Below the pieces are notes generated by a model. The model worked only from the letters and a program-made list of their open reading frames with translations, had not been told where the DNA came from and searched no databases. From positions 3,968,001 through 4,032,000 of the forward strand of contig CP126198.1 of NCBI GenBank assembly GCA_030272155.1: 64,000 bases of DNA, in the 5' to 3' direction. The translations under genes were made by a program, and so were the position numbers. This document shows positions 742-64,000 of this stretch, piece after piece. The stretch's first letter is position 1, and each line of letters begins with the position of its first letter. Origin of the DNA: Tetradesmus obliquus (Eukaryota > Chlorophyta > Chlorophyceae > Sphaeropleales > Scenedesmaceae).

Positions 742-3700
742 TTAGGCGGTCGCAGGCTTGCCGCCGCCTCCTGCCTCGGGCTTCTTGTGCTTGTGCTTGC
801 TGGACAGGTCGGTGTACAGCCAGGTTCCTGCAAGCGCGATGACTGTGCCGACCATGGCCTGCTGCGTCAAGACCTGGTTGAAGAAGAGCACGCTGCTGAA
901 GATAATGACGATGCGCTTGACCACGTTGCACACGCCGTGGCTCACAGGGGACACGCGCTGCAGCGTGTTGAACGCAAACTGGTTGTACAGGTGGTACAGC
1001 AGGCCCACCATGAACAGGTCGCCGTAGAAGCGAGCCTCGCCCACCTGCAGGAAAAGAGCGTGAAAAGGCAAACAGGAAAGAACACAGCATTTGTGAGTTT
1101 TGAAGGCAAATTGGTTGTACAGGTTGTACAGCAGGCCCACCATGAACAGGTCCCCGTATAAGCGAGCCTCGCCCACCTGTACAGCAAAAATGGAGCAAAC
1201 AAAGCAGAGCAGAGAATAGCAGTTGAGTGTTGAAGGCAAACTGGTTTTGCAGGTGGTACAGCAGGCCCACCATGAACAGGTCACCGTAGAAGCGAGCCTC
1301 GCCCACCTGCAGGAAAAGAGCGTGAAAGGCAAACAGGACAGAATACAGCATTTGTGAGTGTCGAACGCAAACTGGTTGTACAAGTGGTACAGCAGGCCCA
1401 CCATGAACAGGTCACCGTAGAAGCGAGCCTCGCCCACCTGCAGGAAAAGAGCGTGAAAAGGCAAACAGGACAGAATACAGCAGATGTGAGTGTTGAAGGC
1501 AAACTGGTTGTACAGGTGGTACAGCAGGCCCACCATGAACAGGTCACCATAGAAGCGAGCCTCGCCCACCTGCAGGACAAGAGCGTGAAAAGGCAAACAG
1601 GACAGAATACAGCATTTGTGAGTGTCGAACGCAAACTGGTTGTACAAGTGGTACAGCAGTCAGATCATGAACAGGTCACCGTAGAAGCGAGCCTCGCCCA
1701 CCTGCAGGAAAAGAGCGTGAAAAGGCAAACATGACAGACTACAGCAGATGTGAGTGTTGAACGCAAACTGGTTGTACAGATGGTCCAGCAGGCCGACCAT
1801 GAACAGGTCTTTGCAACAGCGAGCCTCGCCCACTTGCAGGAAACAGGGTGGCCAAGGATTTGGCGGGAAAGCAGCTGAGCAGAGCAGGGAGCCGCACATT
1901 GCATGTTGCTGATGAAGAGGCTATTAAAACAAATCATGCAACGTACTGGTCGTGTAGAAGCATGTTGGCTCTCATTGCAGAGTGGATCTGTGTTATGAAT
2001 TTCACCTTGCTACTGCTGCTTAGCGACCGGTCTTCGGTTGACTTGTGTGCTGCCAGCACCCACTGCTAATGCTATCTGTGAGATGTGATATGTGGATGTT
2101 ACCCATGTTAGGTGTGCTGCGCACCTTGGCGATGGCAGCTGCTGCGCCAGCCTGAAGCTGGGGGCCTTCCATACCGATGGCAAAGGGCAGGCACACAATC
2201 ATGCTGATGAGCGTGGTGTAGGCGTACACTGCCGTGCTGGACAGCGTCTTGGTCATGGCACTGCACAGCAACACAAATAGAAGCAGACAGCAGTAAGAGG
2301 GCGTCCTTAACGGCGATGCCCGCAGCGCTGTATGTGAGAGTCTGCTCGGCTGACAGACACCATCCCACGGCTGCTGTCCTGCAAGCCTAGGCAGCCTGCA
2401 GCATGCATGCAAACATAGCAAACCGCTTGCTCCTTGCTGTGCATACGAACACACCCTGCAGTCACATCCTACAAACCACGCAATGCACCCCAGTCCTGCA
2501 AGCCGCATCCCGCAAGCTGCATGTTGCCAAGCTGCATGTTGCCAGCCACAACTGCCACTCACACCTTGCCCCAGACCGCCCTAAAGCCGAAGGTCAGGTT
2601 GGAGAGCATCGCGCTGATGAAGCTATCACAGGTCAAGCAATGCTTTTGCATGCATAATGTACACTGCTTTAGCTCTAGCGTATGCAGCATCCTGCAAGCT
2701 GACTGCCACTCACGCCTTGCCCCACACCGCCCTGAAGCCGAAGGTCAGGTTGGAGAGCATCGCGCTGATGAAGCCGGTCCAGTTGAAGGACAGCTCCCCG
2801 GCTGAGGCCAGGCCCACACCAACCATGATGGGCAGCAGAGACAGCATCACGGGCAGGGGCGTGGCCTCACCCAGGATCAGCCTGCGGATTGGAAACAGAG
2901 GCAGCAAACAGCACAGTTGGTGTTGGAAAGACGTGTTGTTATGGGCACCAGCGACAGCATCACGAGCAGGGGCGTGGCCTCACCCAGGATCAGCCTGCAA
3001 TGAGAATCCGGTCAAGCAGCAAGAGGCACAGCATCAGCCACTATGTTGATGTATGGTGTGATGGGCACCAGAGACGGCATCACAGGCAGGTGCGTGGCCT
3101 CACCCAGGAACAGCCTGCAATGGGATTGCGGTCAAGGCAGCAAGAGGCACTGCATCCAGGATCAGGTTGAGTTGTGTGTGGTGAAGGCACCAGTGTGTGC
3201 CTTGGCCACCAGCCACAGCATCACGGGCAGAGGAGTGGCCTCACCCAGGATCAGCCTGCGGTTGGGCAGCGTTTTCAGTACGTCACAGCAATTGCACAGC
3301 ATCAGTCGTCGTGTTGTCTTGCATGGAGAGGGCCCTGCTGCATGAGCGGTGAATGGGGAGCGAGGTCTGCTGCTGCTTGCACGACACGATGCGCAGCAGC
3401 AGGAGCCCTGGAGCCCATGCAGCACAGGCGGTTACCACAAGAAGAAGCAACAGAGCATTCCTGACGCCCGCCTGCTGCTGCTGGTAACTGACATGTACGC
3501 GCCGCACCTGCTGAGGATGACGTTGAAGGCCGGCTCCAGCGTCTTGACGGTGTGCGTGAGGCTGATGGCCACAGCGGCAAAGCTGATGTTGGCTGCGATG
3601 TGCCCGATGGCGTGCATGGTGGCGGGGCCAAAGATCTTGCCAAACTCCTCCTTGCTGATGCCCTGCAGGGAGCAACATAACACAGAAGTAAGGTTGCATA

Positions 3701-5830
3701 CAAAGCTATGGCACCGATCTAGTGCCGAAGATCTTGCGAGCGGTGCCCTGCAGGGAGCAGCAACAGGGAAACAGCATACATCAGGTGCTTGCAGGACATG
3801 CATGTGGCAGTAGCTGCAATGAGTACGCAGGTGTGGTCTTTGCCGCACTCCTCCTTGCTGATGCCCTGCAGGCTGCTTGGGAAAGCAAAACAAAGAAGGC
3901 CACATCCACACCACGGCAACTATGACATCAGCCTGCACGCAGGCCAACGCATGATGCAATACCATGCACGCCAACACTGCAAGGAGCTAACCAACACCAT
4001 GCACAATCATGCAAACTGCCCACCCTGGCTGCACTGCATCAGCTTTCAGCCTGCTCACCCTGCCGAAGGACAGCTGCTTGGCTCCAATGAGGTACACCAG
4101 CGCGCAGTAGGCGGTGCCCACCACCACCCACTGCATCTATATTCAATGTCAAATTTTCAGGTACCACGCTCACAAAAGTAACACACTCACCCTGCCGAAG
4201 GACAGCTGCTTGGCTCCAATGAGGTACACCAGCGCGCAGTAGGCGGTTCCCACCACCACGTGCACCGTGGACACGGTGTAGGGGAAGGGGAAGTACTTGA
4301 AGATGGACTTGTTCAGCAGGTTGAAGTACACGTTGAGCGCATACCTGTTGCAATGTATGGTGATGGAAATGATACACAAGGTATGTTGGTGGTGAAGCAG
4401 CAGAAGCGGCACAGTATGATTAAATGAATTTGTGCCTGAGCAAATGAAACAGAGGTAACGAGAGAGGTGGCAGGAGGTTGATTGTGGCACTACTGTTCAT
4501 TGACCAGCAACAACAAAAAGATTGTCGGCGGCCTGAAAAAGCACGACCATCTCGCTGTTGGCGAACATCAACAGTCATGGAGGCGCATCTGTTAGCATTC
4601 ATCATGCGCAGCACGCACACATCAAACAAACGGTAACGGCAGCACCTCCACTGGCTGTTTATGTTGGCCAACAAGGAGATGGCTTTGCTGGTGGCGTGTG
4701 TGCACTGCGCACGGTGTCTAGTTGCTGTGTCGGTTGAGCCTTGCTGTGTGCTGCACATAGCGCTGCGTCACTTGCCGGCCAGATCCCACTGTTGCGCATC
4801 AATGCTGCTGTCTAAGCATGCTGTCAGATGGTAACTAGGGCTGTGCTGCTGAGAGCATGCTGGCACCAGCACCCAAACTGGCAATCTGTCACTAAGTATA
4901 CGTGGGCATTGGCATTTGTTCAGTCCTGAAACTGCCGTGCTATGCAGCATGGCTGCAGCTGAATGCGTGAAGCATGGTGTGTGTGGTGTGCATGCATGTT
5001 TTCAACAACAGCACAGGGCCCTTCCATTGATCTGCCTGCTGTGTGATAGCTGCATGCGCCCACTACCCTGCAGGTTGCTCCACCGGCCATCATTACAGCC
5101 AGACCAGTGCTGCTGCTGCTGCTGCACGGGAGCTGTGCGCTCGGCCGCCCTGGAACCACAGCTGCTGGGCACGGCTGTCACTGCACATGCTGCTGCTGCC
5201 TGCTGCTGCTGCTGCTGCTGTCGCTGCTGATCCGGCACGCACCAGAGAGCAATGAAGCCCAGAGTGACCGCTGACTTTGCATTCTTCTCGCCAACGAACT
5301 TGGCCACAGTACTGCAGGCGCAAAACACAAGTCAGTTGAGCATGCAGCACGTACTGGCACAGGTCAACAGGATATGCTGCTGCAGCGAAACGCCCTCAAC
5401 AATCAACAGCCAAGCCTGCTAGCAATGCGACATTGAGGGATTTAAGAGCGTTGAAATGCCAGGGATGCGAAGTGATGGTGTGCAAACACTGCCGCAACGT
5501 GACCCACGTCTCGAGAGGGTCGAGTTCCTTAGGAGCGCCAGAGTCGGCTGCGGCCTTGACTGCCACTGGTGCAAACTGCGGCTGCTCAAACTGAGGAATC
5601 CTGCTGGTCTGCAGTGGCCTGATCAGGCCGGGGGCCACCAAGGGGCGAGCCAGCCTCTGCAGAGTCGCAACCAGGATCCCAGTGAGACCGTGCACGGTGT
5701 GCAGCCAAACCCACAGTACTGCGTTCTAAGTATCGTATCATTAAACATTTATATATTTTGTCACCTGCGTTGGCCGGCTGCTGGACAGGCTGGCCAGCCT
5801 GGTGTTGCATGCCGAGAGAGCGGACGCCAT
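742..5830 (-). CDS. Plastid triose-phosphate/phosphate translocator (pPT family)
   Basis: Inner-envelope antiporter of the drug/metabolite-transporter superfamily. The family exchanges triose phosphates or related phosphorylated C3 compounds for phosphate. Eight exons give 399 aa: 5765-5830, 5508-5656, 5243-5311, 4191-4344, 3508-3662, 2714-2881, 2125-2260, 742-1044; all junctions are GT-AG and in phase. The start ATG (5828-5830) opens an Ala/Ser/Arg-rich transit-peptide-like leader (MASALSACNTRLASLSSS). Family motifs follow in order: YFPFPYTVS, SFAAVAISLTHTVKTLEPAF (about residues 173-192), LSFNWTGFISAMLSN, VYAYTTLIS, YHLYNQ, and the double-basic substrate-binding pair KR (about 342-343) in CNVVKRIV. 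The wording resembles TPT more than the PEP or hexose-phosphate branches. The substrate is inferred. Introns 4 to 7 are full of partial copies of the neighbouring exons. Confidence 0.9.
1045..1850 (-). repeat. Six tandem copies of the translocator exon 8 acceptor edge
   Basis: Intron 7 contains six further copies of the first about 80 bases of exon 8 (reading VGEARFYGDLFMVGLLYHLY) with the preceding pyrimidine tract. Exon starts lie at 1176, 1306, 1437, 1569, 1701 and 1833, against 1044 for the real exon, so the period is 130-132 bp. All but the most distal keep an AG acceptor in CTGCAG or CTGTACAG context; at 1833 CAG has become CAA. No copy carries a clear donor. Minus-strand reading stays open across 742-1647, with two copies out of frame where the unit is 130 and 131 bp. 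Confidence 0.9.
2564..2632 (-). repeat. Copy of the translocator exon 6 donor edge
   Basis: Near-identical copy of the 3' end of exon 6 (LSNLTFGFRAVWGKA region), including the splice-donor context, lying in intron 6 about 150 bp from the genuine edge at 2714. Confidence 0.8.
2945..3265 (-). repeat. Three copies of the translocator exon 6 acceptor edge
   Basis: Intron 5 carries three diverged copies of the first about 55 bases of exon 6 (LILGEATPLPVMLSL) with the adjoining intron end, at about 2945-2998, 3062-3118 and 3206-3262. Spacing is about 115-145 bp. The AG acceptor is retained in each. Confidence 0.8.
3722..3873 (-). repeat. Degenerate copies of the translocator exon 5 acceptor edge
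   Basis: Two partial copies of the start of exon 5 (GISKEEFGKIFG) with CCCTGCAG-type acceptors lie upstream in intron 4, at about 3722-3755 (badly decayed) and 3838-3873. The genuine exon starts at 3662. Confidence 0.7.
4056..4131 (-). repeat. Copy of the translocator exon 4 donor edge
   Basis: About 75 bases at the 3' end of exon 4 (GTAYCALVYLIGAKQLSFGR) are repeated in intron 4 exactly 132 bp from the genuine edge. The copy is nearly perfect and so probably recent. Confidence 0.85.
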
Positions 5831-7244: not shown

Positions 7245-7352
7245 TCACTCCATGCTGCTGCTCACGCGCCTGTTGTCCAGCGTGCCCACCAGCACTCCTG
7301 TCCCCACCAGCAGCTGCCCAATCGCCAGCACCAGCTCCTCACTCTCAAACCC
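7245..7352 (-). repeat. Extra copy of the CofD-like gene's terminal coding segment
   Basis: Closely matches 7481-7590, the last about 36 codons of the CofD-like gene including the in-frame TGA, but lies about 240 bp beyond the genuine stop. It is therefore a 3' tandem duplicate, probably within the 3' UTR. Confidence 0.85.
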
Positions 7353-7480
7353 AACACACTTTAAGCTGTGTTGACACCCATTTCAGAGACGTGCCACCAT
7401 AAAATCTGGAGATTGCCCTGCAGGCTGCAAGCAGCCGGCCAGCACTACACTCAAGCACGAATATCTACACCTCCTTGGGA

Positions 7481-9808
7481 TCAGTCCATGCTGCTGCTGA
7501 CGCGCCTGCTGTCTAATGTCCCCACCAGCACCCCCGTTCCCACCAGCAGCTGCCCGATCGCCAGCACCAGCTCCTCACTCTCAAACCCTACCCGCCCCTC
7601 TGCATCCAGCACAGACCCAACCTCCACCACATGAGATACTCCCAGAAGCTCCAGCGCTGTATGATCTACCTCAATTTCACCACCTCGGGGCACCAGCAGC
7701 GTCGTAACATACGCAGACGGCGGGTTGCGCAGCGGCCCCCGCACTGCTGCAGGGGTTGTTCGGCTGCCAGGTTTAGCGGCTGCTGAGGATGCGGCTAAAC
7801 CTGAGGAGCCTTGCAGGGAGTGAGCGCGGCTGCGGCGGCGGTTGAGGGCATCGGTTATGGCAGTTACGACGTCGCTGGCGCGCATTGGGCCGCCGTGGCT
7901 GCCGCAGCAGGAGGTCTCGCGGTCGTGGCAGCCGTTGAGCAGCAGCACCTGGACGCAGCAGGCACAGACACAACCGGTTTCTTGATATCTGATCCGATGT
8001 GTTGGGTTTGTTGTCGCCAGAACTCCGTGGTCACTTTGCTTGCACACTCCAAGTGCAATATCTCTGTGAACACACAATTCAACTGCAGCAGAAGGAGATG
8101 TGCTGGCGGCACCTTGGGGTTGTTGCTGCGCGCTGCAATGGCCTCTCCCACGCTCTGCATTGATAGTGCATGCTGCTGCCTGACACAGCTGCACACAGCT
8201 ACACACAGCTGCACACAGCTGCACACAGCTAGTTGTGTGCAGCGCTGCACACAGCTGCATGCATGCATCTTGCGCACCTTGGGGATGTCGCTGCGTGCCG
8301 CAATGGCCTCCCCTACGCCGTCCAGGATGAGGGTGGGGCAGATGCTGGTGTACAGCGAGCCCATGCCGTACACCACAGCGTCGGACCGCTGCACATCCTG
8401 CGGCAGCAGCAGCAGCAGCAGCAGGACCGCAGTCGAATCAATGGCAGATATGCATTCCAGGCACTTCCATGAGAGGCTGCAACGACGCCACTGCAACCAC
8501 ACATAGCAGCAAACACCATACAGTCCGCCAACGACGGCTGCAGTTCTGCCACAGCACAGCACATGTGCACGTACCTGTAGTATGCGCGGGTTTGGCTGCG
8601 GTGCCACCTCATGAACCTGGCCGGTGCCCTCGCGCGGCAGGTAGCTTCGGGCTTTGCGGCTTCATGCTGGCTTTGTGTGAGTCACAAAAGCCATACGACC
8701 CTCGCAGATCACATTCCAGCCATGCTACGCACTCACAACAATGCAATGCAGCAGCCCACACGCCAACCGCTGCCAGCCACCCACCTGCAGTATGCGTGGG
8801 TTGGGCTGCGGCGCCACCTCATGCTCCTGCCCGGTGCCCTCGCGTGACAGGTAGAACACGCGCCGGATGGGTGAGGGCAGCGGCTCGTAGTGGCGGCTCT
8901 TGTCTACTTGGGATGGGCCTGCACAGAGCACACAACACAGCGCAGCACATAGACAGGTAGATGAGGTTCCATGTGCTGCTATGCCACAGCGACAGAGTGT
9001 GCAGGAGCAGCAGCAGCAGGAAATATCATGGATGCCGGATCTTGCGGCATGCCACATGCCCTACGCGTGTCCTACCAGGTGATATGTGTGTGCAAATTGC
9101 ATCAAAGTGTTGGTGAAGGAGTCAAGGTACAGCTGTGCTTGCTTGAAACCAGCCAGCACCCTCACCTGCGGCCTCAGGCCCTGCAGCCACGTCCGGGTGG
9201 CTGATGTTATTCTGCCCCCGTATGACAGTGCCGTCCTCCAGCTCAGCACCCAGCGTGATGACCTCCTCAGTGCAAAAAAAGCATCACCACAGCCGTGCTG
9301 CGCAGCACGCTTCACCTGTGGCCTGCGAGCCTGCCTTCATTTGTATGGCTGATGTCTTTCTGCTCCGCTTGACAGTGCAGTCAATGTGCAACAACTGGAT
9401 AGCAGCACTACCTGCCTTACCTGCGGCCTCAGGCCCTGCAGCCACGTCCGGGTGGCTGATGTTGTTCTGCCCCCGCATGACCGTGCCTCCGTACTTAACA
9501 AAACACCAGCAATTGCCTGTAAACCGTCCTAGGTTCCTAACCTGCGGCCTCAGGCCCCGCTGCTACGTCCGGGTGGCTGATGTTGTTCTGCCCCCGTATG
9601 ACAGTGCCGTCCTCCAGCTCAGCACCCAGCGTGATGACCTCCTCAGTGCAGATGGCGGGGAGCACGCTGGATCCTTCAGGGATGCGCGCGACGCGGCTGC
9701 AGCAGCAGCAGCAGCAGCAGCAGCAGCGTGTTCAGCGTGATGACCTCCTCAGTGCAGATGGCAGGCAGCACACTGGAACCTTCGGGGATACGAGCGACGC
9801 GGCTACAT

Positions 9809-9857
<49 letters not shown>

Positions 9858-10166
9858 GTGTTCAGCGTCATGACCTCCTCAGTGCAGATGGCGGGCAGCA
9901 CGCTGGAGCCTTCGGGGACGCGCGCAACGCGGCTACAGCTGCAGCAGCAGCAGGAGCAGCAGCAGCAGCAGCAGCGTAATCAAATTGGTGCAGCAGTGTG
10001 CGCTGCAGGTGTGCTGGTGGCGGGCAGCACACTGCTGCCCTCAAAGAAGCGCGCGGCGCGGCTACAGCAGCAGCAGCAGCAGCATCGTGTTTTGAACGGG
10101 GGAAGCCGAGTGTAGTGCAGATGGCCAGCAGCACGCTGCTGCCCTCAGGATGCGCGCGAGGCGGCT

Positions 10167-10202
<36 letters not shown>

Positions 10203-10276
10203 GCAGCATGTTGGAATGGTGTAGCAGTGTACAAATGGCGGGCAGCACGCTGCTGCCTTACAGGATGCATCCACGG

Positions 10277-10316: not shown

Positions 10317-12972
10317 CTCTGCGAACGCTACGCCAGTGTGCGCTGCAGGTGGCCGCAGTGATGTCTGCGGCCTTAGGTCCCAGCTCGATGGAATGGGAGC
10401 GAGGGGTTGTGGCGATGTCAGCCATATATTCAGCTGAACCAGCAAACTGCTGCCAGGCGTGGTGCGGCTCACTTGAACCAGAACACTGCACCCCTACTTC
10501 CCTTGCTGATTAATCAGGGCAGGTGCATGGCCGCAGAGCATTTCAACCGCTTCACTGCGACACTGGTACGAATATAACATATGTGCAAGGCGTGCCGCGG
10601 TTCACCTGAACAGGAACACTGCGCTCTCCAGGGACCTGAAGAAGGTGCGCGCGCCAGCAAAGAAGAAGTTGCCTGCAACAGCAGCAGCAGCGCAGCGCGC
10701 ATCACAGCTTGTACGTGACAAAATTGGCCCGGCCCAGCCGTGCTGCAGCCGCCCAAAAGCGGGGATAGACGAGGGACAAGGAACAGACACTCGGCAACAC
10801 CTGCAGCACCTTGCAGCACCCACAGCAGCTGCATGCGTGCCCTGCCGCTCACCGATGCTGCCATTGGCAAAGCTGAACTCGTGCGTTACCTGGCCCAGGA
10901 TCTGCAGCTGGAAGTGCACCAGGAAGGCCCACCACTTGCAAACCATGTCCAGGCTACCCATCTCAACACCCTAGCCAGCCCTCACATGCAACATCTTGTG
11001 AGCTTCTGCCGGTACAAAGCATCTACAAGTGCTTGCAAGCCCCTCACCGGTGCTGCAGCTGCTCACCCTTGGAATTATTATGCAGCACATGCAGGACAAA
11101 CCGCCCCTGCCGCTCACCGATGCTGCCGTTGGCAAAGTTGAACTCGTGCGTGACCTGGCTCAGGATCTGCAGCTGGAAGTGCACCAGGAAGGCCCGGATC
11201 ATGTGCTTGTAGGGCTCGCTCACGCCACCCCACAGCGGGTGGCGGCCCTCCACGATAGCATGCCATTCTGAGACAGCCTCTGCGGCACTGCTGCCGGGCA
11301 GGCGGTGCGCCAGCAGCCGCTTCACTGCGCGCGCCTGCGGAGGTGCGATGCACAAAGAAAGCCAGCAGAACACGATGCAGAGCGCTGTCACCAGAGTGCG
11401 GGCAAGTCAATCTTTTGGACAATGAACATCTAACCTGCAGCTGCGGGGAAAACACTCCAGAAAGCAGGCAGCATGTGTGAGGTAGGCTGTTGCGGCCCTC
11501 CACGATGGCGTGCCATTCTGAGACAGCCTCCGCGGCGCTGCTGCCGGGCAGGCGGTGCGCCAGCAGCCGCTTCACCGCGCGCGCCTGCATTGCGGTTTTG
11601 GTTCAGAATCAAGGCCAGCAGAACACCATGCAGCAGCTGTGACCAAAGTACGGACAACCTGATGCTGTGCATGTAAACATAGCCTAGTAAGCCTACAGCT
11701 GCAGGGGAAACCTGCAGAAAGCAACAGGCAGAATGGGTGAGGCAGGCCGTGGCGGCCCTGCACGATGGCGTGCCACTCAGAGACAGCCTCAGCAGCGCTG
11801 CTGCCGGGCAGGCGGTGCGCCAGCACGTGCACTAGGATATGCGTGGGACACTAATTTGTTGGCTGTTCATGCGCAGCTGCAGCCGCCTCGCTTGGCGGGC
11901 AGCATGCAGCCTCGCCAAACCTTGCTGAAGCGCTACTAGGTGCAGCACTAGAGTGTGCTAGGCACTTGACAGCCCTCTCACCTCCTCGTCCCTGTCATCG
12001 GCCAGGCGCAGGCACCTGCTGCGTATGTCGCCGACCGCGGGCCCGCCGATCACGCGCACAATCTCCGCGGTGCTGCCGCCATCATCACTCACGGGCAGCA
12101 CATGCGCCACATGCGTGGTCAGCTTGCGCAGCGGGCCTGCAGGTATAAAGGAGCGAATGTCAACTTGTGTTTGTCAAGAGTCGTACTGTTTCAATACACT
12201 GTGACAAGGGCAGCACGTGCGCCACGTGCGTGGTCAGCTTGCGAAGCGGGCCTGCAGCGGCAAGATAGGGAGTGCGCTGAAAGATATTGACATCCATCAA
12301 TGCAGCGAGCTAGGTCTTCAGCCGCCCCACTGCTGCTTACCCACATGCAACATGCACAAAGAGAGATGGCAATGCATGCTTGCTTCTGCAGCGTGTCTGG
12401 TTGCTGCTGTTGGTGCCCTCGTGCTGCTGCTGACGGGGACTGGTGCAAGCATACCAGGGACTGGTACATGTGCGCAGCTCTGCATGCTTTGCAGCACATC
12501 TGCAGATATTGCTTCAGCCTTTCTGCCAACCACCCCAGCGCATGCACCCCAAAAACCCTTACTGCCCACCTGCTACGCTGTTGTTGCGGCTATGCCTGGT
12601 ATGCAGCATATACCTATCTTGAGCTGTGGCTTCATCCTGTGTGCCAACCACCACAGCACACGCACCAACAAACATTTGCCCACCTGCTACGCTGTTGAAC
12701 GCTGTGCCTCCACTGAAGACTAACAGGTTGGGGCATGCTAGCTCCGTCTGCAGGGAGACTGTCGAGCAGCGTGGTAACCGCTTGCTGCTGCTGCCAAGTG
12801 ACTGGTGGAGCTCTCCAAGGGTGTCTGCTGCCTGCAAGCCAACTGACTGCTGAAGGGGCTCCATACTGCTGCTGCTGCTGCTCCTGCTGCTGCTGTTGTC
12901 ATTCTGAGGGGCTTCTGCTACGCAGGCGACCGCTGCATGTATGTTCAGCCACAGGGCAGGCCGCGCATGCAT
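7481..12972 (-). CDS. CofD/YvcK-like Rossmann-fold protein
   Basis: Member of the CofD-like (2-phospho-L-lactate transferase/UPF0052) family found in plants and fungi as well as prokaryotes. The plant proteins have no settled reaction that I can name. Eight exons give 534 aa: 12684-12972, 11982-12136, 11118-11334, 10606-10672, 9542-9696, 8785-8918, 8278-8397, 7481-7948, all in phase. Family motifs: VFSGGTAFNS (about 85-94), HVLPVSDDGGSTAEIVRV (108-125), GPAVGDIRSRCLRL, FANGSIGNFFFAGARTFF, LEDGTVIRGQNNISHP, VVYGMGSLYTSICP, VLLLNGCHDRETS, VTAITDALNRR. The SGGT and DDGGS loops are the nucleotide/phosphate-binding signatures of the fold. The first ATG gives a Ser-rich leader; ATG at MEPLQQ is an alternative start. 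CAG arrays and exon-edge copies fill most introns. Confidence 0.9.
8109..8165 (-). repeat. Copy of the CofD-like exon 7 donor edge
   Basis: Diverged copy of the 3' end of exon 7 (GVGEAIAARSDIPK) with its donor side, in the intron 3' of that exon. The genuine edge is at 8278. Confidence 0.75.
8575..8650 (-). repeat. Copy of the CofD-like exon 6 donor edge
   Basis: Diverged copy of LSREGTGQEHEVAPQPNPRI with a GTAC donor, 210 bp from the genuine donor edge at 8785. Confidence 0.8.
9166..9541 (-). repeat. Three copies of the CofD-like exon 5 donor edge
   Basis: Copies of the 3' part of exon 5 (GTVIRGQNNISHPDVAAGP) have donor edges at 9166, 9316 and 9421, against 9542 for the genuine exon. The 9166 copy extends over about 105 bases. 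The 9316 copy is strongly decayed. Confidence 0.8.
9697..10320 (-). repeat. CAG-linked array of five CofD-like exon 5 acceptor edges
   Basis: The start of exon 5 (RVARIPEGSSVLPAICTEEV) and the (CTG)n tract before it are repeated upstream. Acceptor edges lie at about 9802, 9932, 10061, 10164 and 10278 (the last badly decayed), against 9696 for the genuine exon. Spacing is about 103-130 bp, and each copy carries its own CAG/CTG run of 4-15 units. Confidence 0.9.
10853..10941 (-). repeat. Copy of the CofD-like exon 3 donor edge
   Basis: About 88 bases of the 3' end of exon 3 (LVHFQLQIL through FANGSIG) with a GTGAGC donor, 265 bp from the genuine edge at 11118. Confidence 0.85.
11491..11826 (-). 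repeat. Two copies of the CofD-like exon 3 acceptor edge
   Basis: The first about 93 bases of exon 3 (ARAVKRLLAHRLPGSSAAEA and following) recur at 11491-11584 with an intact TGCAG acceptor, and at 11749-11826 with the acceptor end lost. The genuine exon starts at 11334. Confidence 0.88.
12205..12256 (-). repeat. Copy of the CofD-like exon 2 acceptor edge
   Basis: Copy of PLRKLTTHVAHVLP with an upstream CTGCAG acceptor, about 120 bp upstream of the genuine exon 2 start at 12136. Confidence 0.8.
12545..12600 (-). repeat. Copy of the CofD-like exon 1 donor edge
   Basis: A short copy of the exon 1/intron 1 junction (GTAGCAG|GTGGGC) with flanking intron sequence, about 120 bp from the genuine donor at 12684. 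Confidence 0.6.
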
Positions 12973-31452: not shown

Positions 31453-31488
<36 letters not shown>

Positions 31489-52236: not shown

Positions 52237-52294
<58 letters not shown>

Positions 52295-55200
52295 GTGTGA
52301 CCTCCGGCACATCTTCACTCGCGTGTGCAATCGCCTCAGCCACAATCGCCGGCAGCCCAGCGCCACCCTGCTGCTGCTTTGTGCCAGCACCGCCCCCTCC
52401 AGCCGCCAGCCCATCGATATCAGAGCGCGTCAGCCACTGCATGTTGCTCTTGCCGTTAGAGTTCACATCTGAGGGCGTCTGCTGCTTGCTGGGCCCTGCT
52501 GAATTAGGCCGCGTTGCTGGATCCGAGTGGTCCAGCACTAGAGTGAGGCGGGGCTGTGTGGGCTTGGCTAGTGACCAAACCTTGACTTTGCTGCCCATGC
52601 CGCAGGTGGCCACCTCCTGCCGGGCAGGGCAGTGCTCCATGCATTGGATGGGCGTGTTGTGTGCGTCCTGCTCGGCCTGCAGTTCAAGCGAGACCAGCGC
52701 CACAGAGGTGAGACAGGTCAGCAGGCACTGGCATGCGTTGCTAGCTGCGCATGTCCTGCGCTGTTTGCATGCCGTTTGGCGCTCCTCAGTTAGTCAACAG
52801 TACAGCAGATAACAGCTGCTTATCAACACAACACACAGCTGTACACAGCTTGATGTTTCAGATCATGATATAGTGGCATGCACATAATCCAGCCCTCGGC
52901 TACAGCAGCCCACTGCACTGTGCCGAACCATCACCACTCACATGCAGCTGCTTCATGGTGCGCAAGTCCCACACACGCAGGCTCCTGTCTTCGCTGCAGC
53001 TCAGCACCAGCCCGCCAGGCAGCGCCGCCAGCCCAGTCACCTTGCCCTCATGCCCTGTCAGCAGCGTGGGCAGTGCTGCTGCATCGCAGTCGCCTGCAGT
53101 GCTTGCTGCGTGCCCGTCCAGGTAGCTGAGCTTGATGCTGCCGTCCTCGCAACCTGACATGATGCAGTGCTGCTCTGGCAGGTGCAGCAGGCACAGCACG
53201 TTGCAGTCTGCCACTGGCGTGTCCTCCTGCAGCAGAGCAGCAACAGCAGCAGCAGCAGCAGCGCCAAACGCCTCAGTCCTGCAGTGCATGGGGCTGCAAG
53301 GGGTTATGATTCTGACGTGCGAGGCGAGGTCTGCATGCTGCTCATGCACAGGTAATAGAGCTAGCCGGCCAACCTTTGTAATCATGACAATGCGTGCATC
53401 CCTGCCTGCCATGCCCAGTAAGTCACGAACTGCCGAAGTACTGCAATATGGTGCCAAACAGCTCAAGGCTGCATCAGCAGCCACACTCACCACCAGCCTG
53501 TACACGTCACAGTTCTGCTCTGCATCCAGCTCCCAGCTGCACACATGGCCTTCCGCACTGAAGGAGAACAGGGACTGGTCAAACGTGTCCTGGCTGCTGC
53601 TGCTGCCCTGGCACACCAGCAGGCCCTCAACCCAGTCCTCATGTGCTCGGAACACCCTGCAGCATGACAGCAAACATGTAAAGGACGAATCTCTTTGTGG
53701 TAAATGCACAGTTATGTACCTTCTAACAATGCTCACATGTGTGTGCGGATCGCAGGGAACTTCACAGGCAAGCTGACATAAGCATGTGCACACGCCCAGC
53801 CGCACAGCATGCAAGCCGCGTGCCCAGTGCACAAGGCCTGCAGGGGCAGTGCTGCTGCAGGCCAACTGCAAGCAGCACTGTGCGCACCTGTGCGCTGCAT
53901 GCGGGTTGTACTGCCACACCACCAGCTGCCGCTGCGCTGTGCCTGCCAGCACCAGGTCGCTGCCAGGCGGCGCGTACAGCAGCTCCACTGCGTGCTCCTG
54001 CAGACAGTATGTATAATAATGACAATACTATACAGTAAATGCATGATTATGCACCTTCCAGCAAAGTTGGACCAGCACAACCCCGCACAAGGTATTCAGT
54101 ATACACAGTGCGCCCCGCCAAATGCTTTTGCGTCCCCAGGCACACAACAGTTACAGCTGTTCTACTGTGCTCAGGCAATAAAACAGGGCATCGTCCATGC
54201 ATGTCATACAGTAAGCAACACGGCTGCTGCTGTGCTTGGAGGTCGTTTTCAGCACAGCTGTGTGGCCCACCTGCAGCTGGTTGGGCTGTGCCACGTACTC
54301 TGTGATGACTGCTGGCGCACGCGGGTCCAGCGCAGCCAACTTGCCTGCCCGCCCCGTGGCCCACCAGTGGTTGCAGTGCGGCAGGTATGCACAGCTGATG
54401 GGCTTGTTGCTGAGCCCCTCAAACTTGTCCAGGCACCTGCGGGCAGCGATTGACATGCACGTCATCAGCAGCCTGTGCGCTTGTGCCACCCCTCAGCCTC
54501 TCCTGCTGCAGACGCATATACATCACTGCAGTCGCAACTGGGCAAGCAAACATTATTGTGTGTCTCCAACTCAAACTTGCCAGCTGCTGGCCAACCCCAC
54601 CTGCCCTCCACGCTCCACACCCGCAGCGCGCCGTCCAGGCTGCCAGCCAGCAGCACGTTGTTGTGCGGGTCGAAGGCGAGGCTGGTGAGGCCCGCGCGTG
54701 CGCAGTCCTTCACGCGCCTGAAGGCCTCCTTGGGCTTGTCCAGCTTGTCCACATCGTAGCTGCAGATGCAGCGGTCAAACCTGCGCAGCAGCAGCGTTGT
54801 TGATGTGACATATACTCATGAAGGCCTGGATATCCTGTCTGAAGCAGACGCGTGAAAGTCTTGCACCCAGAGCAGCTGTGTGTGCTGAATGATGTCGGGC
54901 TGCAGCTCAGGTGGCATAACTACTGACATATAGCGCATCCATCGTGCAAGCTCGAACTTGTCCTGCAAGCGTGTCCTGCAAGCTCACCCTGCTGTGAAGA
55001 TCTTGCCGCCCTCAGTGATGACAACACACTTGACCACATCTGTGTGGCACACCCCATAGTAGTCTTCCTCGCGCTGCCTGCTGCCATACACCAGCCCGCC
55101 AGCAGAGCCAGCGCCTCTGCTGCCACCAGCTGCTGCCTTGGGCCTGCTGCTGCTGGTGTTGGTGCTGGCAGCAGCTTCCGACATGGCGTCACCGCCAGCA

Positions 55201-56716
55201 GCCGCTGAGTTTGCTGCTGCTGCTGCATCTGCTGCTGTTTCACTGGCTTGGGCAGCTGCCAGCAGGTCTGGCTGTTCATCATCGAAATCCTGTGTGAACC
55301 TGCCGCCGCCGCCACCGTCCTGCAAGGCAAATACAGCCCAGCAAGCAGTCATACCTACATGCAATGTTCGCCTTAGGGCAGCAACTGCAGGAATTGCCAT
55401 CACATTCGCTGCTTTCAGATCCCATTGCAGGATCTCAACCATGGATACTATTAATCAAACAATGTTCTGCCTGGGGTACATCTAGCCGGCTCAGGAGCAA
55501 AACATGGCGCTGACAGCGCACATTCCTCAGCTCGTACCTTCCTGCCAAGTGCTTCTACTCCTACTGCTGCACAGCTGCCAGGCCGCTGGTGCTGCTTCCA
55601 GCCCTTGAAGGCAGGGCACACTCGCCGCAGCACCTGCGGGGCATCTGAGCTGCCAGGGCCTCCAGCAATGCCCAGGCCGGCAGCTGCTGCAGACACGGGG
55701 CTGTCTTGCTGCTGCTGCAGCTGCTGGCGTGCTGTTGGCTGCGCGTTGTGGCGTGCATGCTTCAAGCGCAGCACATCTGACATGTCCACCTGCAGCAGCA
55801 GCAGCAGTCGCGGCCGGGTAAGCATAGCAGGCCAAGCCCCGCAGCGGCAGGCAACCTGCTGCAAAAACAGCCGGACCGACAACACATGTTGCTGCTGGTG
55901 CAGCGGTTCCAATGTCAGCGGCTGGACATGTGCCTGCTTATAACAAACTCTTACGGGTCCATCCAGCCACATGGCAGTGCGAACAATCGCAGCCGACAGC
56001 TGCTGCCGCTGCTGCTGCTGTCACCTTGTAGATGTGCATCACGCTGTTGCCGCCTGCCACCAGGATGCAGTGCTTGCTGCTCCACGCCATGCTGAACACA
56101 GGCCACCCTGTGGGCACCACCTGCAGGAACACGTCAGCAGCACAAGCAGCAGCATGCCACAGCCATTGATGTTCAGCTTTCACTGTGTTCTTAGTTTTTG
56201 AGCAGCTACCAAGTCGGCACAAGGAGTTCTCAATCCCCATCATGCTTGCTCCTTGGGCTACTGCAGAGCAAAGGTTGGCGCCGTGCAAGCTAGCCCACAT
56301 CATCATGCTGGTCAGGCATTGCTGCTGCACCTGTCTCTACCCACCTGTAACAAGCTGCCTTTGTCCGTCCACACGCCGATGCTGCCATCTATTGAGCCAG
56401 AGAACAGCAGCTTGACGCTTGAGGCGTATGCCAGGCATGTGACCATCCCCTTGTGCACAGCCTGGCTGCGCAGGCGCTGCCCTGTTTTAAGGTCCCATAC
56501 CTGGAACAATGCGTGGAAAGCAGGTGTTTGTTCCATGCACGTTTGATGTTGGCTGTGCAGATTGCAAGGACGCAGCATCAGGCTGGCATCGCACACCTTG
56601 ATGGCGCGGTCGCCCTCTGCTGCTGTGTACACCTCCCGCTTGATGCGGTTGAAGGCAATGGCCGCCAAGCTGTCCTCATGGGCAGCATTGATAACCTGGA
56701 TGATTTCCATAGCCAT
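50159..56716 (-). CDS. WD40-repeat protein, about 13-14 repeats
   Basis: Sixteen exons give about 1058 aa: 56597-56716, 56345-56500, 56025-56120, 55538-55789, 54988-55319, 54601-54780, 54271-54436, 53888-53997, 53491-53656, 52942-53226, 52293-52676, 51938-52056, 51681-51782, 51100-51391, 50692-50901, 50159-50365, every junction in phase. WD repeats are seen as GDRAIKVWDLKTG, SIDGSIGVWT, FDRCICSYDV, GSLDGALRVWSVEG, AQRQLVVWQYN, AEGHVCSWELD, CEDGSIKL, SEDRSLRVWDLR, GSKVKVWSL, DELLRLWSTKG and SWDGALRLWKR. This is enough for two seven-bladed propellers. Low-complexity linkers lie in exons 4, 5 and 11, and an Ala/Arg-rich segment ends the protein. It is probably a scaffold; axonemal, trafficking or ribosome-biogenesis roles are all possible. 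Exon-edge duplication is nearly absent here, unlike in its neighbours. Confidence 0.85.
52238..52292 (-). repeat. (GT)27 microsatellite forming a splice donor
   Basis: On the coding (minus) strand exon 11 of the WD40 gene ends ACACAG and is followed directly by an unbroken GT run of about 55 bases. The donor GT is therefore the first unit of the microsatellite. Confidence 0.9.
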
Positions 56717-60379: not shown

Positions 60380-62566
60380 TCACTGCTGCTGCCGTGCTGC
60401 TGCTGCTGCAGGTTGACCTGTTTGAGGTGCTGTACCGCTGCGGCAGGGGCATGGGGGAGAAGGCCTACAGGCAGCACCTGGACGCACAGGTGCGCGCGAC
60501 ACACAGATCCGCACCCTCATGCATGCACGCAAACGCACGTGCTTTTTGGGTGTGATGCAGCACACCACATTCTGTGTGGATCAGTTTGTCCTTTGGCTGA
60601 TCTCTTCGGCTGCTTATCTTGATGTCAAGAGCTCTTGCTGCTGCTGCTGCTGCTGCTATTGCTGCTGCAGATGCGTGGGCTGCTGGCGCAGCTGGTGGCC
60701 AAGGATGCGTCAGGCGTTGACTTGCCCTCAGAGCTGGCTGCGGTGGCAGCAGCATACAACAGCCAGCAGGAGCAGCCCAGGTAGGGCACAGCAGCGGCAG
60801 CAGCCATCGTTGGGGTTGCCAATGGCAGTGCGTGGTGTTGTTGAGCACATGTGGGGCTGAGGGAGGGCTGGTCTGCTGTTGCACGACGCTTGCACTGCAA
60901 AGTCTGAAAGTTTGTTCGTGTGCATACCAGCATGCACATCAAAGCTGCAAAGGTGCAGGTGACGGCCCTCTTGCTCAGCTCTTGCCATCACCTGCACAGG
61001 TTGTTCTTCTAGTGCCGGTTGTATCCAAAGTCACCAGCCGAGGTAATATCAGAGACACCAGTCACAAAATGGTGTTCTGCTCCTGCCGCTGCCGCTCCTG
61101 CACCTGCTGCTGCGGCCGCTGCCACAGCGTGGTGCTTGTTGAGGCCAGCACGCTGCGCATGTCCTGCCCCAGCGTGATTGCACCCAACCCCCACAACATG
61201 GCCGTGGCGCTGGGCACTGCACACCTCAGCCTGCAGGTGCTGGTCAACCAGGGCCAGGTGAGGCTGATCGCAGTTGGGGTGGTTCGGGGGTGGGGCGTTG
61301 GGTGGCAGCAGGGTGGGCATGGCTGGGCTGCGGCCACCTGAGCCTGCAGGTGCTGGTCACCCAGGGCCAGGTGAGCACTGCTGCATCAATTTGCCTCTTA
61401 TCTTCTGGCCTGGCACTATGCGTTGACCAGGTTGTGGCTCAGCTGGTGCTGGTCAGCCGGTGCCAGGTGAGAAGTGGGGCGCGACTCTGCCTTGGATGAT
61501 AGTGCCAACTGCTTCTTCATCATTATTCCTGCGCATCTTCTGTTTGTCTTCTTTGGATGTCTTTTTTGGATAGAACATAACTAATTTCCAAACAACACGC
61601 CCCACCTCACCTCCCTCCCCCCCCTGCTCGCAGGGTGAGCCGCCCGAGGAGGAGCAGCTGGACGTCAACTACAGCAACATCAACCGCGTGGTGACCAGCA
61701 TCGGCAGCTCCAGCTACCACCCAGCCTTTGCAGGGCGACACCTGGCAGAGCTGCAGGTGCGGCGGCAACAGCAGCAGAGGGTGCAGCAGCAGCAGCAGCA
61801 GCGGCTGGTGCAGCAGCAGCAAATTTGGTACATTGCACATGCAGCAAACATGCTTGCGTTCTGGTCACCTGCACGGCTTAGATGCTGACGTGCCCTCTGC
61901 AGTTGGTTGCCGCTGCTGCTTGAACCTAAATCAGCGTAAGCCGGCAGCTGCTGTCTTTTTGCTTGCACACTTATCGTCATTGTTGTTGTTCATCTACTCA
62001 GCCATGCTGTGGACACTGTACGACTAACGTCTACTGCTGCCTCATGCTCCGCTGCCCCACAATGCTGCGCTGCACGCTTCAGTGCAAGGCGATCCCCAGC
62101 AGCCTGGGCGCTGAGGTGGCTGAGGCGGCAGCAGCAGCGCAGGGCGGCCGCGGCGGCATCGTGTTCAGTGTGGGCATGGCGCTGGAGGTGGGGCAGCGGG
62201 ACAGGCTGGTGGCGCTGCTGAAAGAGCAGGTAGGAGAGAATATACTTGTGTAGTATGATGAAACAGTGCTTTCTTTGCTGCCGGCAGTTGTATCGCGCAG
62301 CGCGTAGGCTGAAGCGCTGTCAAGGATTACTGCATGCAATCAAAAGATAGGGTTTGTGCGCCTGTTGTCCGTCAATGTGTTCAGCGTGGGCATGGCGTTG
62401 GCGGTGGCCCAGCGGGACAGGCTGGTCACGCTGCTGAAGGAGCAGGTGAGTGGGGAGCAGAGGAAGCAGTGCCCACTTTGCCAGCTTGGATCGCTAACCA
62501 CTTGTATGCTGCATCATTAATCTTGTGTTGATTCATTCCTGGCAAACCAAAACATGTGGGCTGTTA

Positions 62567-62622: not shown

Positions 62623-64000
62623 GTGTGCTGTGCATGGAGGTCAGCTCCACCATCCATGAGCCATCACAGCAGCAGGAGCGACGGCCGAAGAAGATGTCCA
62701 TGTGAGCTGCCATTGTCTATACAAAAGCTGCAGCAGCAGAAGCAGGACATGCACAAGCAGCTGGTTTGCTGCAGCTGGTGATTGCTGGCTCTCTGCATGC
62801 CAGCAAGCAACAGCAAGACATGCACACGCTGCGCAGCATTGTTGCTGCAGCTGCTGTTTGCAATCTGCGTGTCTGTGTGTAGGGAAGATGTCCATGTGAG
62901 CTGCCAATGTCAATGTGGCAGCAGCACTAGTACCAGCATCAGCAGGATATCCATAGCCAGCTTCCTTGTTGCAGCTGGTGGTGGCACTCGTGTGTGTCAA
63001 ATGCCAGGTCCGGCGACGTCACTGGCAGCTGTGCAACTTACTACAACGATCGCAGCTTTCACAAATGCATTGCATGCGTATACATTCTCACAAACGCCTT
63101 CTAAATAGGCACATGCCGCTGCTGCTGCTGCCACAGGGGCGCCATGCCCCAGTCCTACCACAAGCAGCCGCTGCCCCTCTCCAAGACCACCCCAGCCTCC
63201 GCTGCACGGCCCAACCCTCTGGCCTTCACAAAGTCCACACCCTCGCTGCAAACAACCAGCACGCCAGCCACAGGCGCAGCAGCAGCAGTCAGCAGCAAGC
63301 CACCTTCCGGCCGCACGCAGCAGCGCAGCCGCCTGGATGCTACCACACCTGTGCAGGGTGCAGTAGCAGCAGCAAGGCATGCTGCTGTGCTGCCTACTGA
63401 GGCTGCTGCTGCTGCAACAGCAGCAGCTGCTGGTGCAGATGCAGCGCAGGCAGCACTTGCAGCCACCACACCTGTGCCTACTGCTGCACAAGCTGTAGCA
63501 GCAGGCGGTGCTGCAGCTGCTGTGGCGGCAAGCGAGCAGCAGCAGCTTGGCAGCGACTCGCAGCTGCTGGCAAATCTGGATAGCATTGCTGCTACTGTGG
63601 AGCGCGGGAAGGGGTCAGGGTCTAGGCGGCCGGGCCGCCAAGTGGTGGACTCTCAGGAGGCTGCAGCAGCAGTGGAGGCAGCAGGAGGTTCTGCTGCTGC
63701 TGGGGTTAGCAGGGAAGCAGCAGCAGGGCCAGTAGTGCAGCGCGGCAAGCGGCAGCCGGCTAGGGGTGCGGCAGCAGCAGCAGCAGAGGCAGCACAGGAG
63801 GACCAGCAGCAGCAGCAGCAGATGGAGGTTGATGCTGATGGTTGGGAGGCTGATGTTGAGCTGCATGAGCTGGATGAGGAGGCTGCTGCTGCTGCAACTG
63901 CTGCTGCTGCTGACAAGGCTCAGCAGGAGCAGCCCAGCAGGACACGTGCTGCTGCTGCAACAGCAGCAGGCACAGACAGTGCACAGGAGGGCGATGACAA
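57410..64000 (+). CDS. Large unrecognised multi-exon gene, truncated at the right edge
   Basis: Fourteen exons, about 783 codons before the window ends: 57410-57436 (first exon tentative), 57814-57957, 58190-58314, 58557-58650, 58861-59014, 59386-59491, 60007-60175, 60412-60489, 60671-60780, 61128-61257, 61634-61756, 62083-62229, 62622-62701, 63137-64000 and beyond. All phases agree. The first about 270 residues look helical, perhaps armadillo-like (DQVLLQLSVLERLLSLVPQD, ELPQALAAAVQCITTLAQQ, APALLGPLLRLACMDS). A middle region (NINRVVTSIGSSSYHPAFAG; RGGIVFSVGMALEVGQRDRL) looks folded. The last exon is acidic and Ala/Gln/Ser-rich with Thr-Pro sites and basic patches (RGKGSGSRRPGRQ), as in many chromatin or chromosome-axis proteins. 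I cannot name the family. Several exon edges are duplicated in the introns, and many acceptors sit at the end of long CTG runs. Confidence 0.65.
59337..59385 (+). repeat. (CTG)16 tract abutting a 3' splice site
   Basis: About 16 CTG units end in CAG and exon 6 of the right-hand gene begins at 59386. The tract takes the place of a normal polypyrimidine tract. Confidence 0.85.
59691..59746 (+). repeat. Copy of the exon 6 donor edge, right-hand gene
   Basis: Copy of LLGLACMDNR with a GTGGGG donor and the following CTTGAGCAGCAGC intron sequence, 235 bp downstream of the genuine edge at 59491. Confidence 0.85.
59854..59913 (+). repeat. Copy of the exon 7 acceptor edge with broken AG
   Basis: Copy of LTPTYYSLRCCTTGALREL, 153 bp upstream of the genuine exon 7 start at 60007. 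The acceptor CAG has become CCG, so this copy should not splice. Confidence 0.85.
61330..61475 (+). repeat. Two copies of the exon 10 donor edge, right-hand gene
   Basis: Copies of LSLQVLVTQGQ with a GTGAGC donor (ending about 61371) and of QLVLVSRCQ with a GTGAGA donor (ending about 61467). The genuine donor edge is at 61257. Confidence 0.8.
62372..62455 (+). repeat. Copy of the exon 12 donor edge, right-hand gene
   Basis: Copy of FSVGMALAVAQRDRLVTLLK with a GTGAGT donor, about 215 bp downstream of the genuine edge at 62229. Confidence 0.88.
62560..62619 (+). repeat. CTG tract abutting a 3' splice site
   Basis: About 18 CTG units run into CCAG, and exon 13 begins at 62622. Another instance of a triplet tract used as the 3' end of an intron. 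Confidence 0.85.
62884..62905 (+). repeat. Short copy of the exon 13 donor edge
   Basis: About 20 bases around AAGATGTCCATGTGAGCTGC repeat the genuine exon 13 donor at 62701. Confidence 0.65.

What the first reader, a model, noticed from the sequence alone, without database searches (positions are those of the whole stretch)
742..62905. Introns built from tandem copies of exon-intron junctions
In six of ten genes (translocator, CofD-like, PNPase, phosphatidylserine synthase, ESSS, right-hand gene) introns contain one to nine degenerate tandem copies of the adjoining exon edge with its splice site. Both acceptor and donor edges are copied, never whole exons with both sites. Copies are mostly 80-155 bp apart and range from near identical to barely recognisable, so the process is ongoing. 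It would leave batteries of competing splice sites and could be a main source of intron length in this genome. It differs from introner transposons, which insert introns at new sites. I know of no described system that matches it exactly.
Basis: partly seen in the sequence, partly recalled or inferred. Interest (0 to 1): 0.9.

Follow-up and report, generated by a model that had tools for sequence, protein, structure and literature searches.

The report
Exon edges copied into neighbouring introns
In this green-alga genome, small pieces of exon ends, together with their splice sites, have been copied again and again into the neighbouring introns, far more often than duplications landing at random would give, which shows one way that introns can grow and collect spare splice sites.

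Summary
The genome (104.66 Mb, 17 contigs) fits Tetradesmus obliquus. My gene models give exon-edge copies in the six genes named, and none in three others. Of 323 predicted splice junctions (window plus 12 random 10-kb stretches), 61 have a copy of the exon edge on their own intron side at >=80% identity (54 without matches inside another predicted exon); controls give 3 of 1542 and 3 of 323. Of 115 local duplication arrays in 322 kb, 89 lie on an exon edge and 20 in non-coding DNA alone; uniform placement predicts 23-25% on edges. A copy is typically 45-55 bp of exon plus the splice consensus. Ungapped similarity ends within 15 intron bases in 42 of 56 parent-copy pairs. Copies with an intact splice dinucleotide score like real sites, but transcript-like proteins for two genes contain each edge once.

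Best reading: repeated local duplication across splice junctions, tolerated because splicing keeps using the exon-proximal site, with the exon-derived part kept alike, probably by gene conversion. Selection on the copies is not excluded. One case is in print (potato RdRp); I found no genome-wide account. "Main source of intron length" is too strong.

The parts
965..1850 (-). Translocator (TPT-like), acceptor of last exon 742-1044: six upstream copies of AG|GTGGGCGAGGC..., unit about 132 bp, full-unit similarity for most
   Evidence: gene model checked against P0001
2551..2774 (-). Translocator, donor of exon 2714-2881: one copy at about 2563-2623, 151 bp away, 96% over 73 bp
2826..3265 (-). 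Translocator, acceptor of exon 2714-2881: three copies
4054..4259 (-). Translocator, donor of exon 4191-4344: one copy, 98.6% over 74 bp, no flank homology detected beyond GTGAG
7245..9656 (-). CofD-like gene: donor-edge copies of exons 7526-7948, 8278-8397, 8785-8918 and 9542-9696
   Evidence: Pfam CofD 3.7e-30
9733..10268 (-). CofD-like gene: acceptor-edge copies of exon 9542-9696 (2-4 copies by cut-off, mixed with GCA repeats)
10840..12257 (-). CofD-like gene: donor and acceptor copies of exon 11118-11334 and acceptor copy of exon 11982-12136
14493..15384 (-). PNPase: donor-edge copies (3) and acceptor-edge copy (1) of exon 14983-15219; predicted exon 14748-14906 overlaps one of them and is probably false
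   Evidence: KH and S1 domains of the gene
16895..17187 (-). PNPase: donor-edge copies (2) of exon 17152-17313
18239..19195 (-). PNPase: donor copies (2 clear, 245 and 499 bp away) and acceptor copy (1) of exon 18919-19060
19889..20477 (-). PNPase: donor-edge copy of exon 20404-20559, 497 bp away; a dispersed repeat lies between
31142..31919 (-). Phosphatidylserine synthase: acceptor and donor copies of exon 31437-31667
   Evidence: Pfam PSS 3.2e-62
32540..32788 (-). Phosphatidylserine synthase: donor-edge copy of exon 32755-32854, 97.5% over 40 bp
34356..34627 (-). Phosphatidylserine synthase: acceptor-edge copy of exon 34196-34426
36964..38021 (-). ESSS (complex I): acceptor of exon 36805-37005 with 7-9 copies of AG|CTACACCGGGTTTGGCATTGCTGGCC...; exon part well kept, fillers weakly related
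   Evidence: gene model checked against P0121
59455..60064 (+). Right-hand gene: donor copy of exon 59386-59491 and acceptor copy (AG lost) of exon 60007-60175
61209..61471 (+). Right-hand gene: two donor-edge copies of exon 61128-61257
62161..62447 (+). Right-hand gene: donor-edge copy of exon 62083-62229
44199..56716 (-). Two neighbouring genes (RRM/Mei2-like and WD40/PWP2-like) with no copy found at 37 junctions: internal negative control

Best explanation
Short stretches of DNA around splice junctions are duplicated locally, over and over. Each event puts a copy of the terminal 30-90 bp of an exon, with its splice consensus, into the adjoining intron, mostly 80-265 bp from the original (shown from sequence). 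The gene tolerates it because splicing keeps using the exon-proximal site, so the copy is removed with the intron (seen for two genes through transcript-like proteins, otherwise inferred). Arrays then grow by further duplication of whole units (shown for arrays with full-unit similarity) and decay. The exon-derived part of a copy stays alike longer than its intron-derived flank, even when both copies compared are intronic (shown). I infer that gene conversion with the live, selectively constrained exon edge keeps it alike. The excess on exon edges is therefore partly longer survival and, since the youngest-looking arrays are also mostly on edges, probably also preferential birth there.
For: Copies on the own intron side 61/323 (54 when matches inside another predicted exon are set aside) against 3/1542 and 3/323 in controls; hold-out 5/82 against 0/246 and 0/82. 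Arrays on exon edges: 27/33 window, 35/48 random, 22/29 Pfam loci, 5/5 hold-out; expected 23-25% of tolerated places. Nearly regular spacing within arrays (130-132; 98-100; 119-125 for five of six; 136-138 for four of five) and full-unit similarity in some point to tandem duplication. In three arrays examined most copy fillers are related to each other, though in one (L049) the parent's flank is not. Copy-to-copy pairs with alignable flank: exon part 7.5% mismatches and 1.05 gaps/100 bp against flank 13.4% and 4.5; exon part less diverged in 22 of 27. Full-unit arrays at >=88%: 7 on edges, 1 not. Copy-to-copy third-position ratio is about 1.85 (interval 1.25-2.59), not far from neutral. Transcript-like proteins of close relatives carry each edge once.
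Against: Conversion is not shown directly. By my own reasoning a simple conversion model gives a third-position excess of at most about 2, whereas parent-copy pairs show 3.3 (2.60-4.12; 2.5 outside CpG); old allelic differences could add to it but were not tested. Acceptor AG is intact in 48/49 copies (26 junctions, not independent), more than exon bases predict, which hints at selection. In 29 of 56 copy-to-copy pairs the flank did not reach the homology cut, which plain tandem duplication does not predict, though some of those flanks are masked low complexity. Gapped comparison still finds flank homology in 8 of 19 parent-copy pairs with exon parts >=94% alike, so the flank is not always uncopied. 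Hold-out prevalence is lower (5/82). Gene models are predictions; only TPT and ESSS junctions were checked against outside sequence.
Confidence: 0.55

Rival explanations
1. Plain neutral tandem duplication falls anywhere; exon edges only look special because exon-interior duplications are removed by selection and because the parent exon is constrained, so similarity lasts about twice as long there.
For: Nearly regular spacing and full-unit similarity in some arrays. Donor GT in copies decays like exon bases, 45/56 intact against about 0.80 expected. Non-coding arrays exist too, 20 of 115. Copy-to-copy codon pattern not far from neutral. Weak flank homology in 8 of 19 near-identical parent-copy pairs.
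Against: Edge to non-coding 89:20 against an expected edge share of 23-25%; by my arithmetic a doubled lifetime would raise that only to about 40%. Copies >=90% identical: 32/293 for the last 40 exon bases against 5/271 for the adjacent 40 intron bases (p 1e-5). Ungapped similarity mostly ends near the splice consensus. Full-unit arrays 7:1 on edges.
Confidence: 0.2
2. The copies are kept by selection as working splicing elements (spare or decoy splice sites with their exonic enhancer context), after tandem duplication.
For: The conserved block is about the splice consensus plus 40-60 bp of exon. Among copies with an intact dinucleotide, splice-site scores equal real sites, also where the flank no longer aligns. 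AG intact in 48/49 acceptor copies. Only 2 stop codons in 1341 aligned codons.
Against: GT intact in only 45/56 donor copies. Copy-to-copy changes show little codon constraint. Transcript-like TPT and ESSS proteins lack the copies. Two whole genes do without any. Spacing keeps no reading frame: 24, 22 and 23 of 69 for remainders 0, 1 and 2.
Confidence: 0.2
3. A mobile element (introner-like) inserts next to splice sites and makes long target-site duplications, which are the exon-edge copies; the filler is the element.
For: Geometry of filler plus flanking direct repeat; flanks of parent and copy often unrelated.
Against: Of 69 fillers searched against the fetched sequence, matches at other loci are one dispersed repeat inside a longer intron and short matches that look low-complexity by eye; the fillers do not form a family among themselves. 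Spacing is nearly regular within arrays. The duplicated part is 30-90 bp, against 3-9 bp in introners that show target-site duplications (PMC9860276, passage).
Confidence: 0.03
4. Assembly artefact (interleaved haplotypes or read errors).
For: No reads were available; parent-copy differences are rich in third codon positions, as between alleles.
Against: Arrays of 3-9 copies at nearly regular spacing with graded divergence, in 11 of 12 random stretches at least one array, do not look like haplotype switches. Two neighbouring genes are clean.
Confidence: 0.02

Closest known systems
Boundary-crossing tandem duplication in potato RdRp (Ma, Lan & Niu 2016, PMC4974935; passages read)
   Same: A tandem duplication covering intron 3' end, acceptor and 5' part of the exon; [quoted passage not shown]
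   Different: One event in one gene, giving a new intron. Here roughly a sixth to a fifth of junctions, both donor and acceptor edges, up to nine copies, and the copies lie inside an existing intron rather than making a new one.
Intron gain by tandem duplication of an AGGT exon segment (Rogers 1989; Hellsten et al. 2011; both only as cited in PMC4974935, not read)
   Same: Local tandem duplication supplies splice sites.
   Different: There the source is exonic and yields a new intron; here the source is an existing exon-intron edge and the old intron gets longer.
Internal gene duplication (Gao & Lynch 2009; only as cited in PMC4974935 and in the reference list of PMC3488318, not read)
   Same: Duplications inside genes that involve introns.
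   Different: As cited there, segments containing entire introns; not arrays of one-sided exon edges.
Introners (PMC9860276; two passages read)
   Same: A mass process that changes intron content; found mainly in fast-evolving lineages such as green algae.
   Different: Repeated element families, some with 3-9 bp target-site duplications or terminal inverted repeats; here no family among the fillers.
Short direct repeats near splice sites (Rogers & Bendich 2025, PMC11782384; abstract read)
   Same: Direct repeats close to intron borders.
   Different: 4-30 bp, mean 11.4, read as flanking an insertion; here 30-90 bp copies on one side, repeated.

Membership tests
Tandem duplication crossing an intron-exon boundary (potato type) | Copied segment contains exon edge and its splice site in direct orientation | tested here: met
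   61/323 junctions at >=0.80 (54); 0 inverted matches in the window; splice dinucleotide intact in 93/105 copies
Tandem duplication crossing an intron-exon boundary (potato type) | Whole unit, intron part included, is duplicated | tested here: inconclusive
   Flank homology at z>3 in 21/63 parent-copy and 27/56 copy-copy pairs
Tandem duplication crossing an intron-exon boundary (potato type) | Creates a new intron | tested here: not met
   Checked in two genes: in TPT and ESSS the copies lie inside an intron and transcript-like proteins join the flanking exons directly
Rogers/Hellsten AGGT intron gain | Source is exon-internal sequence (presence of AGGT not scanned) | tested here: not met
   5 of 115 arrays copy exon interior, 89 an exon edge
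Introners | Related sequence in many introns of different genes | tested here: not met
   69 fillers against the fetched loci: no family among fillers; remaining matches are one dispersed repeat and short, low-complexity-looking hits
Introners | Target-site duplication or terminal inverted repeats | not tested
   No element to test
Ordinary neutral tandem repeats | Placement follows available non-coding space | tested here: not met
   89 edge against 20 non-coding; expected edge share 0.23-0.25
Alternative exons / coding use | Copies present in mature mRNA | not testable with these tools
   No RNA reads; proteins from short contigs for two genes lack them

The most novel reading that the evidence does not exclude
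A duplication process that acts at splice junctions themselves: the copied block begins at the splice consensus and runs into the exon, and near-identical copies often lack the adjoining intron bases. This would mean that the splicing signal, or RNA or chromatin tied to it, marks where DNA is copied or homogenised (for example repair or conversion templated by RNA or cDNA of the exon), so that introns grow by feeding on their own exon edges.
Probability: 0.22. Interest if true: 0.92.

Novelty: new variant of a known kind. Interest (0 to 1): 0.7.

Why it matters
How introns lengthen and how genomes tolerate spare splice sites are open questions with few natural systems caught in the act. Here roughly a sixth to a fifth of sampled junctions carry graded copies of a splice site beside the real one, in one compact genome. 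That makes intron growth, splice-site choice among equals, and local conversion directly measurable. It also warns gene finders: mine called 23 copies in the window as exons before filtering, and other ab initio annotations may do the same.

Tried and rejected
Introner or transposon with long target-site duplications: disfavoured, no filler family. Copies as in-frame alternative exons: spacing has no frame (24, 22, 23 of 69 by remainder), and copies are absent from transcript-like TPT and ESSS proteins. Recursive splicing at AG|GT: exons starting with GT are no commoner at copied acceptors (6/27 against 37/141, p 0.81). Intron phase: similar shares, no test run. Conveyor-belt ageing (nearest copy most alike): 13 of 25 arrays for, 7 against, 5 tied, p 0.08, undecided. 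CpG decay as the whole cause of the third-position excess: it explains part, leaving 2.5. Comparison with relatives: the genome tool states that this genome has no relatives here, and metagenome scans are capped at 0, so none was made. (Tim17 family) was a first probe for the translocator and served only as training loci. Literature: nine searches of open-licence papers showed no genome-wide account of exon-edge arrays in their listings; most subscription papers are not held, and I have an unverified memory of regular intron repeats reported in Dunaliella that these searches did not find.

Rows dropped before counts: junctions at gene ends or too near a sequence end; low-complexity edges; exons under 40 bp or with weak coding score; predicted exons flagged as copies; overlapping loci L014, L024, L037, L042 and L001; the repeat loci L002-L008 from the array counts (they were in the training set). 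Pfam was given 7 of the 9 genes, three of them in part.
Full report
WHAT THE GENOME IS. The window is G000:C8:3968001-4032000 of a genome of 104,662,953 bases in 17 contigs. A table in PMC12571836 (passages read) lists a Tetradesmus obliquus assembly of 104.70 Mb in 17 contigs at 56.5% GC (GCA_030272155.1). The window is 57.7% GC (base counts). The name is an inference from these figures; the genome handle bears none.

CHECKING THE OBSERVATION. Self-alignment of the window gives 78 direct matches less than 2 kb apart, 1 farther and none inverted. In 12 random 10-kb stretches the count is 113 direct matches under 1 kb, 2 farther direct, 0 inverted under 1 kb and 3 inverted beyond. Spacing peaks at 100-160 bp and again at 220-260; identities run from about 60 to 100% (window and random pooled).

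To see where these lie I wrote a two-strand gene finder and trained it on Pfam-matched exons and then on its own parses. It yields clean signals, donor CAG|GTGAG and acceptor CTGCAG|G, and merges neighbouring genes: six chains in the window, which I split into nine by hand. Seven of the nine were scanned with Pfam: CofD 3.7e-30; RNase_PH, S1, PNPase and KH; PSS 3.2e-62; ESSS 0.0034, below the curated cut-off; RRM; WD40; no match for the right-hand gene. The names PWP2-like and Mei2-like are recalled, not from a call. The translocator model aligns to P0001 (96% identity), a protein from a 1583-base contig that I take to be a transcript, with no extra residues at the introns that carry copies; my model lacks one upstream exon of about 20 residues. 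The ESSS model matches P0121 at 98%.

On 323 predicted internal junctions, the best match of up to 32 exon plus 8 intron bases, 25-600 bp away on the own intron side, reaches 0.80 in 61. Controls: 3 of 1542 in other introns and 3 of 323 for the reverse complement. At 0.65 it is 88 of 323: acceptors 40/168, donors 48/155; window 33/125, random 55/198. The scan was not clipped at the next exon: 7 of the 61 and 15 of the 88 fall inside another predicted exon. Three stretches fetched later and never used for training give 5/82 at 0.80, against 0/246 and 0/82. So the window resembles the 12 random stretches, and the three later ones are poorer.

WHERE THE DUPLICATIONS FALL. Arrays, as edge / non-coding / exon-interior / exonic: window 27/5/1/0 of 33, random 35/10/2/1 of 48, Pfam loci 22/5/2/0 of 29, hold-out 5/0/0/0 of 5. 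In total 89 of 115 are on an edge; here the copy had to lie outside predicted exons. If units of 100-150 bp fell uniformly among places a gene could tolerate (non-coding, or across exactly one exon edge), 23-25% would be on an edge (window and 12 random stretches). The rate of a copy at >=0.80 falls from 53/293 for the outermost 40 exon bases to 19/226 for the next 40 and 4/126 for the next. For the 40 intron bases beside the junction (6-46) it is 14/271, and deeper in the intron 11/310 to 23/300. At >=0.90 the contrast edge against adjacent intron is 32/293 against 5/271 (p 1e-5). Arrays with full-unit similarity of >=88%, presumably the youngest, are 7 on edges and 1 not.

ANATOMY OF A COPY. 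For 69 copies, ungapped identity is 0.84-0.95 over 30 bases into the exon, 0.87-0.90 over the first five intron bases, 0.58 over the next five, and near background 30-35 bases further in. Unrelated true junctions already match at 0.93-1.00 over the first three intron bases and 0.42-0.56 over the next three, so much of the match next to the junction is consensus. Median ungapped extension for parent-copy pairs is 7 bp (acceptor, 24 pairs) and 11.5 bp (donor, 32 pairs) into the intron, against 45.5 and 55.5 bp into the exon; it is 15 bp or less in 42 of 56. Example: 4059-4127 against 4191-4259, one mismatch in 69 exon bases and no flank homology detected beyond GTGAG. Yet many arrays are true tandem duplicates. 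Spacing is nearly regular. Fillers within an array are related (TPT strongly, ESSS weakly; in L049 the copies to each other but not to the parent). Gapped comparison finds flank homology at z>3 in 21/63 parent-copy and 27/56 copy-copy pairs, and in 8 of 19 parent-copy pairs with exon parts at least 94% alike. Where both can be aligned and both copies are intronic, the exon-derived part has changed less (7.5% and 1.05 gaps/100 bp) than the flank (13.4% and 4.5), in 22 of 27 pairs. These pairs were chosen on exon similarity, which biases the exon figure, and masked low-complexity flanks count as not detected; in my judgement the gap goes beyond that bias.

CONSTRAINT OR NOT. Parent-copy mismatches by codon position are 6.3, 4.5 and 15.4% over 69 copies. 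Weighted by array the third-position ratio is 3.3 (2.60-4.12), and copy-to-copy about 1.85 (1.25-2.59). CpG sites account for part of the excess (2.5 without them). Found with exon-only queries, 93 of 105 copies keep the splice dinucleotide: 48/49 acceptors (26 junctions), 45/56 donors (34 junctions), about 0.80 expected if it decayed like exon bases. Among those 93, splice-site scores equal true sites, also in the 43 whose flank no longer aligns (21 acceptors, 22 donors). Much of that score comes from the four bases next to AG or GT, so it mostly restates where similarity ends. The evidence is mixed: nearly neutral copies with some sign of upkeep, stronger on acceptors.

EFFECT ON INTRONS. 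51 of 157 introns carry a copy; median length is 515 against 290 bp (p 1e-6). Array spans fill 17% of non-coding bases. Genes differ: 26 of 64 junctions in the left block (Q/A-rich gene with 0/6 included) against 0 of 37 in the RRM and WD40 genes (p 7e-7). The blocks were compared after I had seen the contrast.

HOW IT MOST LIKELY WORKS. Shown: local, direct, edge-centred duplication; growth of some arrays by whole units; faster loss of intron-derived flanks. Shown for two genes: the spliced product uses the exon-proximal site. Inferred: conversion with the live exon edge keeps the exon part alike; birth is biased to junctions. Not known: whether copies are used in splicing, and what breaks or copies the DNA.

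AGAINST WHAT IS KNOWN. The nearest case is one boundary-crossing tandem duplication in a potato RdRp gene (PMC4974935, passages). Introners are disfavoured by the lack of a filler family among the fetched loci. I saw no report of exon-edge arrays across a genome in the listings of nine searches, which cover open-licence papers only. I therefore file it as a new variant of a known kind.

LIMITS. Gene models are predictions from a small self-trained program; predicted exon 14748-14906 is probably false and adds a few junctions. Sample: 64 kb window, 150 kb random, 108 kb Pfam loci, about 0.3% of the genome. No RNA, no reads, no second strain.

Noticed in passing
window 20121-20346: Dispersed repeat: the search with 20000-22000 gave 45 matches over the genome (itself included), most to this stretch; it sits in the PNPase intron between the exon 20404-20559 edge and its copy.
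   Followed up: no
window 44199-56716: Two adjacent genes (RRM and WD40) have no exon-edge copy at 37 junctions while genes on the left have 26 of 64; the process seems to differ by gene or region.
   Followed up: partly
window, many places: Many CAG/GCA trinucleotide runs in introns and exons, often just upstream of acceptors.
   Followed up: no
L056:5798-6157: Near-identical array with a 37-79 bp period that contains the donor site of exon 5684-5824 up to eight further times: the youngest-looking case.
   Followed up: partly
copies in window and random stretches: Acceptor copies keep AG in 48 of 49, donor copies keep GT in only 45 of 56; the difference is unexplained.
   Followed up: partly
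proteins P0131 and P0133: Open frames on 4-6 kb contigs from other sources look like the second ESSS exon of relatives read from genomic DNA; their introns could show whether the array is shared.
   Followed up: no
L049:5703-6330: Two predicted exons share nearly a whole exon's length (at least 150 of 153 bases); whether this is a whole-exon duplication or a false exon is unclear.
   Followed up: no
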